In this document: piece by piece, positions 10,031-23,849 of the stretch
How the letters are laid out: each line of letters opens with the position of its first letter
Numbering within the stretch: position 1 is the stretch's first letter
Assembly: GCA_910890315.1 (NCBI GenBank)
Contig: CAJVGD010000018.1
Location: forward strand, 1-64,000
Length of the DNA stretch: 64,000 nt
Source: Serendipita indica DSM 11827
Taxonomy: Eukaryota > Basidiomycota > Agaricomycetes > Sebacinales > Serendipitaceae
Direction of reading: 5' to 3'
Made by a program: the position numbers and the translations under genes
Notes under the pieces: model-generated
The model's input: only the letters and a program-made list of their open reading frames with translations
The model's database searches: none
What the model was told of the DNA's origin: nothing

Positions 10031-10921
10031 GATCAAAAGTAGTTGGTTGTTGGTTGGAGAGAGTACTGGTAAGAGGGGAGAGCAATGGCCAATATGGTCG
10101 GGAACAAAAGACGGGCGACGCGCTTGGGCGTATTTGTGTGCAAGATCACGTGATCGCGTCCACCGCGTCCGGACTGCTGGCACCCTTGACAGAATATTAT
10201 TGAAAAATACGAGATACAAGCCAGGTGAGTATTAAAGCAGTACTAACAATTCTTCAAGGTAGTAGCTGGGCGAGGGGCGGCGACTTTCTCGACTTGGTTT
10301 AGATGATTAGACAGCCCGACCACATTCATATTTATCTTTGTGCATATAGCCAGAGGCTCTTATCGGAGAGCGGATAGACCTTGGTCCATCAGAACTTGGA
10401 GCCCTCGTCAGAAGCACGTCAAAGTCTAAACTCTTGCGGCCACGTATCGTTATTGTTCACATGTCAAGCCGGCTAAAAGTATCTGTGGGAGACGGTCCCT
10501 GGCAGACTTTAGCCGCAGAAAGGCAAGACGGCTCTTGATCTTTTGGACTGCTCTTGATCGTTTGGACAGACCAAGTATGGATCTCGTATAACACCCTAAA
10601 TACAGTTCCTAGGCTAATCGTGGCATGCCGCGTGTATGGTTGACGTGCCCGAATCGCAGATGCATATAGGGCTCGCCAGAGAGCATCCAATGCACTGTTT
10701 CTTTGATAAATCAGTCTATAACATGGATTATGGTTGGCTTATGTGCATATTCGTACAAGCTGGAACAATGACCGGCTGGAGCCATCCTGGAGCCAGGCTA
10801 CAGGCGGCGACCACAGCAAGCAGGCTTTAGCCATTTGTCGGCTGAAAACAGCGAGATGTCATTGTAAAAAGAAGGTGTGGCGAATGTGTCTGGGTGTGTT
10901 TTGCCACAGCTCGAGTCGGGC
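10031..10921. other. Intergenic: H4 upstream region and left edge of the duplicated unit
   Basis: No gene seen. Bases up to about 10397 are single-copy here. From about 10398 (agccctcgtcagaagcacg) the sequence is repeated almost unchanged from about 16902, so this marks the left boundary of the tandem duplication. Short ORFs are present in both copies (10734 and 17235) but have no start context or recognisable motif and are probably chance. Confidence 0.6.
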
Positions 10922-10929
10922 TATAAAAG
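10922..10929 (+). promoter_or_regulatory. TATA box of gene A copy 1
   Basis: TATAAAAG lies 110 bp before the ATG at 11032. The same element occurs before copy 2, with flanks almost unchanged. A conserved TATA at the same distance in both copies supports the chosen starts. Confidence 0.65.
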
Positions 10930-11031
10930 GCGGCATGCAGCTATCCGCCTCGCTTTCGCCTTTCACTCCCCGACCACAACCACACTGCGCCGAGAAACCG
11001 CTTTGAAAGAGAGTACTAAAGCCTGCTGAAG

Positions 11032-14000
11032 ATGGATAACCGCATGAAACGGGCGGGCACGAAGCGTGAACGCGAGCTCAGCCTGGGACACCAGCAGGTG
11101 CCGACCAAACGAGTCAAGGGAGCCCCGACAGATGTATCTCCGAGTCGTGATCCATCTACGAGTCCTGATGCTCTCGCACTTCCTCCGGTAAGCTCCCCAT
11201 CCTCTCAACATGTTGACCAGCCGCTCAAGTCAATAACTAACGATCCTATGCGCAACCTCTTCTTATTGTATTACTGAATATCCACACGAAAATTGTGTTG
11301 GCGACAACAGTGGGAAAAAAAGAGGACTACGGTGAGCCAGTGATGGCCAGCCAGCCGACGTCTATTTGGATGGTCGGCTGATACCATTCGCAGATCAAAC
11401 CTTCACAAGATAGCGGGTCTTCGAATAAGGCTACCAAATTTCCTACAAGGCCTACCAGTAGCTTGACCACCAAGCTAATCCCTCCGGCTGCCGTAAGTCC
11501 AGTCGCCTTGCTCGCCTTCGATCGCAGTAGCTCAACTCTCGATCATAGATCAAGCTCTTGGGTCTATCCTCTGTAAGTTCCTCATGAATCTTGCCGTCGA
11601 GATGACTCAATCCATAATTATAGCCCAAGCTCACCACGTCAACTTACGGAGGTCTTGTCATGTCGGAAGTTGGTCACAGGAGCGCAGTGCATGTATGTGA
11701 ACGTCATTTATCAGCATGCTTTGCTCTAACTAACACTGCGTGCCTCAAGCTTGCGGCACCAGTCGACCGACAAGACCCTTCTCTGGTGTGTTACCGCTTC
11801 TATGTCCACTAGAGAGAGTCTTCTGACCTATTTCCAGAGGGCATGCCATAGTGATGATGAACTCAATCGACGTGGGGAATCGAGCTCTCCTGACGAGCTT
11901 GTTATCGGACCGTTAGGGCGACACAGACAGCCAGTACGGCCACCCAGTCCTTTAGATGCCCTAGTCAAGCTAGATAATAAAGATGGTCATGGCCCACTCG
12001 ACCGACGTGTGGGTGACTCGAGCTCTCCCGACGAGCTTGTTATCGGACCGATGGCAGGACGTAGACGGCCAGTACGCCCACCTAGTCCTCTAGATGCACC
12101 ATTTGTGGTGCGCCGTCACGAAGCTGAAAGAGGACAGCCTGTCTACGGCAATGTAAGCATTCAGATCGAAAGGATACGTTCTGATTGTTCGATGCAGCTT
12201 ATGCAAGAGCTCTCATACTATCATCTGGGCACCTCGAATGAGGCAGTTCACAAACAGGAGGTTATCAAATGGTCGCCAGAGAACAAAGGTGATCATGGCC
12301 AACTTGATCGAGATGTGGGGGATTCGAGCTCTCTCGAAGAGCTTCTGACCGGAACTATGGCACGACATACATCCCCAGCTCGCTCGCCGAGCCCTTTGGA
12401 GCGCGCATTGGAGCGTCGCCGTCGGAAATCCATACAAGGACGGTCTGTCCTGAACAATGTAAGCAGCTTGGATTATGGATGCATTATCTGACGGTCTGGT
12501 TCAGCCTGGACGAGGGCCTTCGCACTCTGATCCTGATGCCTCCGAGCCTGCCAATAAAGCCAAGATTGCCAAAATGTCACCAGAGGAGCAAGAAAAAGTT
12601 CTCAAGACAGCCGAGATACTCTTCGGCGTATCAGACAGACAATTAGACAGACATCAGAGGGCTCTGGGTTTCGTCACTTGTCGACACCGGGTGGAAACAA
12701 CGTGGAAGAAAGGCGAACCGCTACCGGATTCATCAGAGAACACAGGAGGATCGGGCTACTTCTCTGCATCGTGAGCTAATTTCGGTCAAATTCCTATGGG
12801 GAGTGCTCAACCATAGGCTCAGAACTGCCCCCAGCGCCCTACTCGCTTTCGTCGGTTGGAAGTTCGACCAGCTTCGGAAAGGCGACCCGAAGCAACTTGA
12901 TCGATATCCACCCCTCGACATCATCGGGTGTCGAGCCACTCGAGACAATCTTGAAGATCTAGCAAGCGAGCCACCATCTACTCGCGACTGTCACCGCGGG
13001 ATATGCAGCTCATTGCAGCACGCTCGAGATCATTCTCACTTAACTCTCGAGAGTTTGTTCTAATACCATCTCATTGGAGCGTAAGTGTCTGAGGAATTTG
13101 GCTTGCATAGTCGTCTCACAGCCATTCAGGAGCCCGTGACTAAGGACATACTACAATGGTATGACCCAGAGGCTGGTCCAAGAGATCATCAGCCTCTGCA
13201 GGAGCCAATTCCCAAGAAGCTCCCCCTGACAGACCCAATAAATGATTCCCCAGCCCAAGCGACTTCGTTCACACCCGAGGACCCAGAGGAAGAGGAAGAA
13301 TTAGCGGACAATGATCACGAGTTTGACGTTATGAGTTCTCCTCCTCGGAAGCAAACAGAGAGGGAGAGTATGACGGAACCACGACACTTTATCGAGTCAG
13401 AACTTCTCAGAAGGAGGCTGCTCAGCAGTCTTGATGCGCTAGGAGATCCGATGGTCATGGAGGCAGTTTTCGAGTCCAAGAAATACAAGGAAATTCGAGC
13501 AACGTCTCGTAGGCTCTTTCAATACTATAAAAACAAGATGCGGCTTCAATCTATAGTGGAAGATGGGAAGAGCAGGGACAGGACGCTGGCTAGGGTGGTC
13601 CGTTATCGATCAATGGCCAGCTCCAAAAGGTCGCCGGGAACTCTTAGCGTCGGACATCTGCATGGGGGAGTCGAGACGTCCAAGGAAGATACGCGAGCAC
13701 TCCGACAGCTGCTCTTGATTCTGGAAACCACTGCGACGAATGAGAATGGAGGATCAGATGATGAGATCGAGCTCGGCAGAGAAAAAAGGCGCGGTCAAGC
13801 ATTGGAGCAAGGGCGGGAACACGAGTAACAGCGGGAATAAGGACGGCGAGGACAAGGATGCGCCTCAGCATCAGCCAACAAGCAGAAGAGCGGAGATGGA
13901 TGTCGAACAGAAGTTTGGACTCATATTCAGGGGATATTTTAAGGCTGCCTTTTCAACGATGTCGTGAGTGTTTTGCACCTCAGATATGGGTCTCTAACTC

Positions 14001-22441: not shown

Positions 22442-22560
22442 TTTTGCAGGATTTTTGGAGAGCGTTCGGGGCTTTCCGAGTTTGGTTGCGGAGTTCAAGA
22501 CGCGTTTCCAGCCGCCACTCGGGACCTTTACGCGACGCGGTACTCGACTTGGAAACAGAA

Positions 22561-22568
22561 TTTATATA
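22561..22568 (-). promoter_or_regulatory. TATA box of gene B copy 2
   Basis: TATATAAA on the minus strand, 120 bp upstream of the proposed start at 22441, at the same spacing as in copy 1. Confidence 0.5.
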
Positions 22569-22637
22569 AACTGATTCTGGAATTGTCAAGAGGAAAGGAG
22601 TGACGGTAGAAGTACAACGGGACGATGGCGATTTGAA

Positions 22638-23849
22638 TCACGCCTGGCTCAGTATTATCCGCTCTAGATCCCCGTTGAGTGTCTGCCAGACACTGAGAGT
22701 ATTTCTTTCTCCTTCAACTGTGCTGAAGGCCCAACTATCTGCTTTGAACCGTACCCCAACCTCATCTCCATCAAAGAGAACGGCTTTCAGATTAGGAAGC
22801 AGATTCTCTAGAGCCGCCAGTATAGCTGTGGCAGGCATGGAGTCATCCCACCGACATAGATCCAGTTTCAGCCCCTCCAGTGTGTGAGCGAGTGGTCGTA
22901 ACGTTTGGAACGTTTGAAGCATTGTCTGGGCCTATTAGAGCGTGAGATGCTAACTCGTATGCAAAGGTAGTAATACAGTAACCGGGTCTATTGCTAACCT
23001 CCCGAGGTAGCGGAGATTCTGGAATCTGGGGCCAACGTCCTCAAGAAATTGGATGGTTGCTGAGTCACGCACTCCAATATTGAGATGAGTCAAGCTCCCT
23101 GCGACTCGTAGAAGATGGCGCCGCGCTGGTTCATTATAGTATACGAGGCCAAGACGGGTTATTGGCCGGGTCTGTAATAGGTGAGTAAGCTGGCTCTCCT
23201 CCTCGAGACGTATTGTCATGAGTTCAGGTAGAACCGTGTAGTCTTCGAAGATATCGTCTGTTATGTAGTTTTTGGTCGTCTGCCAAGGTAGGCCTGGACC
23301 GCAAGACCAGCCCAGCATGGTAACATTCCGCATGCATGGGGCGTGGAGAATACTACGCGTGTTGATAGCGGGCTTTGCGCAACTGCATTCGAGATTGAGC
23401 TCTCGAAGGGATCGAGTCTTGAGGTTGGCGAGAAAGTCCAACCTTGTGAAGTGAGAACGACACATCTTGCACCTAATTTGTAAAGATTTGAGGCTCCTTA
23501 GCTCGCACGTGAGTCTGCTCATGCTCAGCTCCCATTCTTCGCATCCGCAACGGCCGTTCCTAACTGAGCTCTGCGTGCAATAGCGGTGTGCAAAAATAAT
23601 GAGGTTGACAATTAGGTATGAATAGCGAGGACTATTCAGGGCTCTCGCGAGCTTAGCGTTGGCTGTTATCGAGATGTTGTGGATTGTCAGCCGCTTGTAC
23701 TGGATGGGTGCCGCTATCGCAAATACTGTGCGCGAGACACGACAGAGCACAGCAAGAGTCTCTTTATCCGACACGTGCGCAAAGATTGCTTCCAGTATTT
23801 CGACTGGTAATTGGAGACGCTTGTTGATGCGTGCAGTGTCTGCAACCAT
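22638..23849 (-). CDS. F-box-like protein with leucine-rich tail
   Basis: Predicted 386 aa from exons 23849-22983 and 22931-22638 (51-bp intron). The N-terminal block INKRLQLPVEILEAIFAHV and LAVLCRVSRTVFAIA is a typical basidiomycete F-box-like domain, expected to bind Skp1 in an SCF ubiquitin ligase. The rest alternates Leu-rich segments resembling degenerate leucine-rich repeats (SLKSLQIRCKMC, SLRELNLECSC, SLTHLNIGV, LEGLKLDLCRWDD). It belongs to the same expanded family as the genes at 30930 and 32963. Its 3' exon is repeated at 16638 because the duplicated unit ends inside this gene. The substrate is unknown. Confidence 0.75.

What the first reader, a model, noticed from the sequence alone, without database searches (positions are those of the whole stretch)
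10398..22890. Tandem duplicated cassette of two convergent unknown genes
The unit repeats directly once. Each copy has the same convergent pair, A then B, with stops about 65 bp apart and TATA elements at fixed distance upstream of both genes. Both products have basic, nuclear-type N-termini and share a C-terminal module, so they are diverged paralogues fixed as a pair. I do not know a described system with this layout. Sequence shows the arrangement; a paired function is inference.
Basis: partly seen in the sequence, partly recalled or inferred. Interest (0 to 1): 0.78.

Follow-up and report, generated by a model that had tools for sequence, protein, structure and literature searches.

The report
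Tail-to-tail live/dead nuclease-like gene pair
A fungus carries, at four places in its genome, a gene for what looks like a DNA-cutting enzyme lying tail-to-tail with a relative of it that has lost the cutting residues; such a linked pair suggests that one protein controls the other, but this has not been tested.

Summary
A unit (10399-16903) is repeated directly (16904-22898), each copy with gene A (+) and gene B (-) end to end, stops 65 and 63 bp apart. New points: (1) A and B share a C-terminal domain (hhalign 99.8%) and, in 7 of 8 genes, a phase-2 intron before it. Three more loci of this genome hold convergent A/B pairs, stops 53-108 bp apart. Searches found no A without B; B stands alone at four places and beside a pair at a fifth. 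(2) All five A domains keep P-D-x(22-24)-E-x-K, the PD-(D/E)XK nuclease signature; 0 of 9 B domains keep E-x-K, so B looks dead. The fold is unproven: no significant library or PDB match, and AlphaFold models were unusable. (3) The window copies differ by 3-5% at the edges but 21% in the core, under purifying selection; copy 1 has frame breaks in both genes. I read this as a co-inherited live/dead nuclease pair, B controlling A, probably in genetic conflict or allorecognition. A repair heterodimer or plain orphan paralogues remain possible. No fungal protein collection was available, so the spread beyond this genome is unknown.

The parts
10399..16903 (.). Repeat unit, copy 1 (frames of both genes broken)
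16904..22898 (.). Repeat unit, copy 2 (both genes intact)
17530..20639 (+). Gene A2: exons 17530-17685, 17893-17991, 18048-18071, 18123-18191, 18249-18284, 18336-18512, 18559-18827, 18881-19133, 19181-19953, 20003-20639; 830 aa; predicted PD-(D/E)XK nuclease
   Evidence: first and last four exons agree between hand model and gene finder, the exons between are less certain
20058..20141 (+). Predicted catalytic motif of A2: P638-D639 (20058-20063), E663 (20133-20135), K665 (20139-20141)
   Evidence: invariant in 5 of 5 A domains
20703..22441 (-). Gene B2: exons 22441-22015, 21960-21231, 21186-20703; 546 aa; paralogue of the A domain without E-x-K
11032..14643 (+). Gene A1, interrupted (stops at 13061-13063 and 13826-13828 in the frames that match A2); its domain, read at 14011-14640, keeps P-D...E-x-K
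14709..16447 (-). Gene B1, interrupted (stop at 15764-15766 after a change of frame)
20640..20702 (.). 63 bp between the convergent stops (65 bp in copy 1, 14644-14708); little room for two separate 3' UTRs
17420..17427 (+). TATA box 110 bp before the A2 start (copy 1: 10922)
22561..22568 (-). TATA box 127 bp before the B2 start (copy 1: 16574)
22638..23849 (-). Intact F-box-like gene, 388 aa, two exons (Pfam F-box-like E 9.9e-5, 22.5 bits, just under the cut-off of 24.3); its 3' end lies inside the repeat unit
16644..16903 (-). Truncated copy of the F-box-like gene's 3' end at the duplication junction

Best explanation
A and B are an old pair of paralogues inherited together as a tail-to-tail unit. 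A is a nuclear, probably active, PD-(D/E)XK nuclease; B is the same domain without the E-x-K residues, joined to a strongly basic arm. Most likely the two bind each other and B controls A (restrains it, or decides when it may cut), so that a genome holding A must also hold B. The locus most likely serves genetic conflict (killer/protection or allorecognition) rather than housekeeping. In the window the pair was duplicated in tandem together with the end of an F-box-like gene; the two copies differ deeply in the core and little at the edges, as if two old alleles had been joined in cis or as if the edges had been homogenised; copy 1 has since decayed. Shown: homology, convergent pairing at four loci, motif conserved in A and lost in B, shared intron, divergence profile, frame breaks. 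Inferred: nuclease fold and activity, nuclear location, binding, control, conflict role.
For: Convergent A/B pairs at C18 (window), C5, C11 and C40 with stops 53-108 bp apart. P, D, E, K and a later Q invariant in 5 of 5 A domains; E-x-K in 0 of 9 B domains. A-B homology hhalign 99.8%; phase-2 intron at the start of the domain in 7 of 8 pair genes, not in C5 A. No A without B, and five B without an A of their own, in 8 protein searches of the genome; no A remnant at E 0.05 or better beside the four far from a pair, in the stretches read. Core under purifying selection, strongest over the motif segment: omega 0.10, dS 0.91. Divergence 3.0% / 21.1% / 5.0% for left edge / core / right edge, three-part model better by 174 log units; 8 of 11 introns and the spacer in the core are diverged too, so this is not selection on protein alone.
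Against: No significant match of A or B to a library family or PDB chain. Two AlphaFold runs failed (mean pLDDT 39 and 31), so the fold rests on a motif. The tree splits A from B with weak support, 66/47, and 32/11 once the motif columns are removed. Nothing here shows expression, binding or toxicity. Copy 1 decayed in both genes, not only in A. Solo B genes do not prove protection; they may be leftovers, and a strongly diverged A beside them could have been missed: the C40 A domain finds the other A domains only at E 0.004 or worse.
Confidence: 0.42

Rival explanations
1. Cooperative heterodimeric nuclease in the style of XPF-ERCC1 or Mus81-Eme1: A cuts, B is a structural and DNA-binding partner for repair or recombination; no conflict.
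For: Active/inactive pairing and a strongly basic B N-terminus in 4 of 4 B proteins; purifying selection on both genes.
Against: The named repair heterodimers are recalled as single-copy, unlinked genes; here the genes are tightly linked, multi-copy, fast diverging, with a decayed copy and solo B genes.
Confidence: 0.22
2. Rapidly evolving orphan paralogues without a shared mechanism; the tail-to-tail layout is inherited from one old inverted duplication, kept by chance and by later copying of the whole unit. The PD...ExK pattern is coincidental.
For: No known family; failed structure models; weak A/B split in the tree.
Against: A coincidental motif would not be expected to lie in the most constrained of the A segments measured (omega 0.10) or to be invariant at about 26-30% identity; no A is the supported sister of its own B in either tree, so pairing has outlived long divergence.
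Confidence: 0.22
3. The pair is a mobile element or a remnant of one, A being its nuclease.
For: Four dispersed pairs and several solo copies in one genome; nuclease-like domain; a 15-bp direct match on both sides of the C18 unit.
Against: No direct or inverted repeats of 12 bp or more between the two 1.8 kb flanks of the predicted C5, C11 and C40 pairs; no mobile-element domain in A2 or B2; the window copy arose by a segmental duplication that cut an F-box-like gene; units of different loci share no flanking DNA at E 1e-3.
Confidence: 0.06
4. For the divergence profile only: one tandem duplication long ago, edges later homogenised by gene conversion, core free to diverge; no allelic origin and no balancing selection.
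For: Direct repeats are known to convert (recalled); edge identity of 95-97% is compatible.
Against: Does not by itself explain why conversion spared a 4.6 kb core across both genes while homogenising both ends.
Confidence: 0.4

Closest known systems
PD-(D/E)XK nuclease superfamily
   Same: P-D-x(22-24)-E-x-K, hydrophobic run before E-x-K, conserved Q after it, invariant in A; the signature itself is recalled
   Different: No significant similarity to any family or PDB chain searched; B has lost E-x-K; fold not confirmed
Spok spore killers of Podospora (PMC9972908, passages read)
   Same: Fungal nuclear protein with a nuclease-like domain; in SPOK3 a lysine in the predicted nuclease core is needed for killing but not for resistance
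   Different: In Spok killing and resistance sit in one protein, resistance in a putative kinase domain; A and B have no kinase match and are two genes. No Spok sequence was compared here
het-B of Podospora (PMC10890737, abstract and outline) and het genes of Aspergillus fumigatus (PMC11138114, abstract and outline)
   Same: Adjacent gene pair with highly divergent variants (het-B); balanced differences limited to the genes and several hundred bp around them (A. fumigatus), resembling the edge/core contrast here
   Different: HET/TIR-like, lectin-fold and PII-like proteins in het-B, none here; variants are alleles there, tandem copies here; here the low-divergence edges reach into the first exons of both genes
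HD1/HD2 mating-type pairs of basidiomycetes (PMC7898863, passages read; divergent orientation recalled)
   Same: Linked pair of genes whose products dimerise (between mating types in HD)
   Different: A2 and B2 have no homeodomain, face each other, and the two KN-homeobox matches of the genome lie elsewhere
Dead-paralogue regulators, e.g. trypanosome prozyme (PMC5201418, title and start of abstract in the listing); XPF-ERCC1 and Mus81-Eme1 (recalled)
   Same: Active enzyme paired with an inactive paralogue
   Different: Prozyme activates its partner; tail-to-tail packaging is not known to me for these

Membership tests
PD-(D/E)XK nuclease superfamily (gene A) | P-D and (D/E)-x-K motif with typical spacing | tested here: met
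   5 of 5 A domains, spacing 22-24 residues
PD-(D/E)XK nuclease superfamily (gene A) | Core fold of a mixed beta sheet flanked by helices | tested here: inconclusive
   AlphaFold mean pLDDT 39.1 and 31.0; too poor for a fold search, none made
PD-(D/E)XK nuclease superfamily (gene A) | Metal-dependent nuclease activity | not testable with these tools
   needs purified protein
PD-(D/E)XK nuclease superfamily (gene B, as an active member) | Intact (D/E)-x-K | tested here: not met
   0 of 9 B domains; the tenth (C18:106 kb) was left out, its frame lacking this part
Spok spore killers | Kinase-like resistance domain in the same protein as the nuclease | tested here: not met
   no kinase family in A2 or B2 at E 1; FunK1-type kinase matches lie at other places
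HD mating-type gene pair | Homeodomain in the products | tested here: not met
Toxin-antidote gene pair | One product harmful alone, the other neutralising it | not testable with these tools
   only indirect: no A found without B, B also alone
Allorecognition (het) locus | Divergent alleles under balancing selection in the population | not testable with these tools
   only one genome held; edge/core contrast between tandem copies is suggestive
DNA transposon | Terminal repeats and transposase | tested here: not met
   no transposase family; no terminal repeats at C5, C11, C40; one 15-bp direct match at C18

The most novel reading that the evidence does not exclude
A new kind of fungal conflict locus: a nuclear nuclease and its own catalytically dead copy packed tail-to-tail, the dead copy acting as protector, spread to several loci and kept diverse; solo B genes would be protectors left behind after loss of the nuclease.
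Probability: 0.22. Interest if true: 0.85.

Novelty: new variant of a known kind. Interest (0 to 1): 0.56.

Why it matters
In the fungal nuclease-based killer described in the passages I read (Spok), killing and protection share one protein. A linked live/dead paralogue pair would be a simple way to evolve a protector from the killer itself, and the solo B genes make that idea directly testable. Even as a plain heterodimeric nuclease it would be a family without a match in the Pfam and PDB copies searched here.

Tried and rejected
Family look-ups gave nothing above a cut-off for A or B: Pfam, NCBIfam, PADLOC, PHROGs (82, domains only), PDB sequences (46 for A: none; 95 for B: best E 0.017, TAL effector repeats, taken as chance), IMG/VR (50, 51: none), prokaryote genomes (98, A2 domain: none; 96 with the alignment could not run). 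The weak Pfam matches (TPD, PSD4, DNA_ligase_A_C, YnaL, zf-MYND) are below cut-off and none covers the A motif; TPD (E 0.019, A1 only) is recalled as a PD-(D/E)XK-clan family, but the match lies beyond the motif. Two AlphaFold jobs on the A2 domain exon gave unusable models (53, 90). Mating-type HD locus, transposon and Spok membership were considered and rejected (see Membership tests). Paper searches showed no listed title or abstract start that describes such a pair; only the listed papers of an open-licence library were seen, so this is no proof that none exists. I considered whether the A1 frame breaks could be extra introns; the one candidate that I worked out by hand for the second break gave a wrong frame, so I call A1 interrupted. 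Sequencing error remains possible: the second A1 break is near a run of six A and the B1 break at a run of five C.
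Full report
Check of the observation. The window (64 kb, start of contig C18 of an unnamed 24.7 Mb genome in 55 contigs) holds a direct repeat: 10399-16903 and 16904-22898. Copy 1 ends inside a fragment of an F-box-like gene whose intact version (22638-23849, minus strand) runs across the right end of copy 2, so the repeat is a tandem segmental duplication that took the end of a neighbour along. In copy 2 gene A reads on the plus strand in ten exons (830 aa in my hand model) and gene B on the minus strand in three (546 aa). A small gene finder trained on window genes, A2 and B2 among them, gives the same B, and for A the same first and last four exons but others between (851 aa). 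The stops are 63 bp apart in copy 2 and 65 bp in copy 1. TATA boxes lie 110 bp (A) and 127 bp (B) before the starts in both copies.

Copy 1 is broken. In the frames that match copy 2, A1 meets stops at 13061-13063 and 13826-13828 and B1 at 15764-15766. The second A1 break lies near a run of six A and the B1 break at a run of five C, so sequencing error is not excluded.

More copies in the genome. Eight protein searches of the genome in six frames found five A-type and ten B-type domains. A-type: window A1, A2, and one each on C11, C5 and C40. Each has a convergent B-type partner. In the models the stops are 53 bp apart on C5 (A ends 1508367, B ends 1508421), 70 bp on C11 (B ends 460601, A ends 460672) and 108 bp on C40 (B ends 38657, A ends 38766). 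Modelled A proteins have 689-883 aa and B proteins 488-584 aa; 5' ends are uncertain. B-type domains without their own A lie at C11:457.6 kb (3 kb from the C11 pair), C18:74.4 kb, C18:106.5 kb (with a further fragment at 107.2 kb), C18:140.0 kb and C31:68.5 kb (a TGA inside one match). Two weaker hits, C2:1343659 (E 0.03) and C40:1804560 (E 0.01, two stops inside), were not followed. A tblastn of the eight full proteins against the fetched stretches showed, beside the four B domains far from a pair, no A match at E 0.05 other than on the B domain itself. The searches score only the best candidates, so counts are lower bounds, and a strongly diverged A could be missed.

A and B are paralogues. 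Profile comparison of the A and B domains gives probability 99.8%, E 1.2e-27, over 157 columns. An intron in phase 2 sits just before the domain in 7 of the 8 pair genes; C5 A lacks it. In trees of 14 domains (the C18:106 fragment was left out) A and B fall on two sides of one branch with weak support: 66/47, and 32/11 without the motif columns. In neither tree is any A the supported sister of its own B, so four recent inverted duplications are unlikely; one old pair copied as a pair is the simplest reading, but the trees do not prove it.

A carries a nuclease signature, B does not. In the alignment of the five A domains (four loci; 26-30% identity between loci) P19, D20, E44, K46 and Q57 are among 14 invariant columns: P-D, then 22-24 residues that end in a hydrophobic run, then E-x-K (the regular expression there overran to a later E-x-K in A1, where the aligned spacing is 23). 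This is the PD-(D/E)XK signature as recalled; no library match backs it (Pfam 10, 39, 47, 57; NCBIfam 58; PADLOC 59; PHROGs 82; PDB 46, 95). In B the E-x-K places read H-G-G, H-Y-G, H-D-E, Q-P-Y, H-H-Y, Q-S-F, E-Y-V, and E-Q-L / E-R-L in the window copies, where the register is uncertain; 0 of 9 have E-x-K. The aspartate of P-D survives in three of the nine. Two AlphaFold runs, with 4 and with 2 window sequences, gave mean pLDDT 39 and 31 and say nothing. The first 150 residues of the four modelled B proteins hold 28-32 K+R against 6-14 D+E; three of four A proteins lean basic, C5 A is acidic (19 against 34).

Divergence of the two window copies. Of 5965 ungapped sites the left edge (to 11361) differs at 29 of 955, the core at 870 of 4117, the right edge (from 16003) at 45 of 893; the three-part model gains 174 log units over one rate. 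Synonymous divergence is 0.025 in A exon 1, 0.45-1.04 in the other A segments, 0.25-0.44 in the core of B and 0.05-0.11 towards the B start; omega in the core segments is 0.10-0.45, lowest in the segment with the motif. Of eleven introns the two nearest the A start are 93% and 98% identical, the one nearest the B start 89%, the other eight 46-82%; the spacer between the stops is 75% identical. So both cores diverged for long under purifying selection, and the breaks in copy 1 look later. Either two old alleles were joined in cis by an unequal exchange, or the edges were homogenised by conversion. Balanced het polymorphisms in Aspergillus fumigatus are reported to be restricted to several hundred bp around the coding sequence (PMC11138114, abstract), which resembles this shape, though here the low-divergence edges reach into both first exons; one genome cannot decide.

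Mechanism. The facts to explain are tight convergent linkage kept over deep divergence, a conserved nuclease-like motif in one partner and its loss in the other, no A found without B, B also without A, and strong divergence with decay. A nuclease controlled by its own dead paralogue fits these. Conflict or allorecognition explains linkage, copy number and divergence better than a repair heterodimer does, in my judgement; the repair heterodimer and plain orphan paralogues remain possible. Against the conflict reading: copy 1 lost both frames rather than A alone, and nothing shows harm by A. The spacers leave little room for two separate 3' UTRs, so the transcripts may overlap, which would allow antisense control; this was not tested.

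Comparison with known systems. [quoted passage not shown] A2 and B2 have no kinase match. het-B of Podospora is an adjacent pair with highly divergent variants (PMC10890737, abstract), with other domains. HD mating-type pairs have homeodomains; A2 and B2 have none, and the two KN-homeobox matches lie at C40:91.7 kb and C2:1020 kb. Between the 1.8 kb flanks of each pair no repeat of 12 bp or more was found at C5, C11 and C40; a 15-bp direct match flanks the C18 unit. Paper searches (listings only) showed no description of such a pair.

Limits. No fungal protein or genome collection was available, so the spread of the family is unknown; the nuclease fold, nuclear location, binding and function are inferred.

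Noticed in passing
window 9492-10032 (-): Histone H4-like gene directly left of the duplication (read from the translations).
   Followed up: no
L036 6998-7777 (-) and L034 6993-7884 (-): Two solo-B loci on C18 (106 and 140 kb) have similar genes downstream on the minus strand (seen by eye), so they look like another segmental duplication.
   Followed up: no
G000 contigs C1, C13, C36, C40, C43: Matches to the STE3 pheromone-receptor family at about seven places, and a KN homeobox at C40:91688, about 50 kb from the C40 A/B pair.
   Followed up: partly
window 11874-12403 and 18372-18457: A1 holds a short segment three times where A2 has it once; the largest gap between the copies lies there.
   Followed up: no
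B2 residues 332-334: N332 and D334 upstream of the domain are invariant in the four paired B proteins; function unknown.
   Followed up: no
flanks of the window repeat, within 1.8 kb: A 15-bp direct match occurs on both sides of the C18 unit; 20 base shuffles gave at most 12.
   Followed up: no
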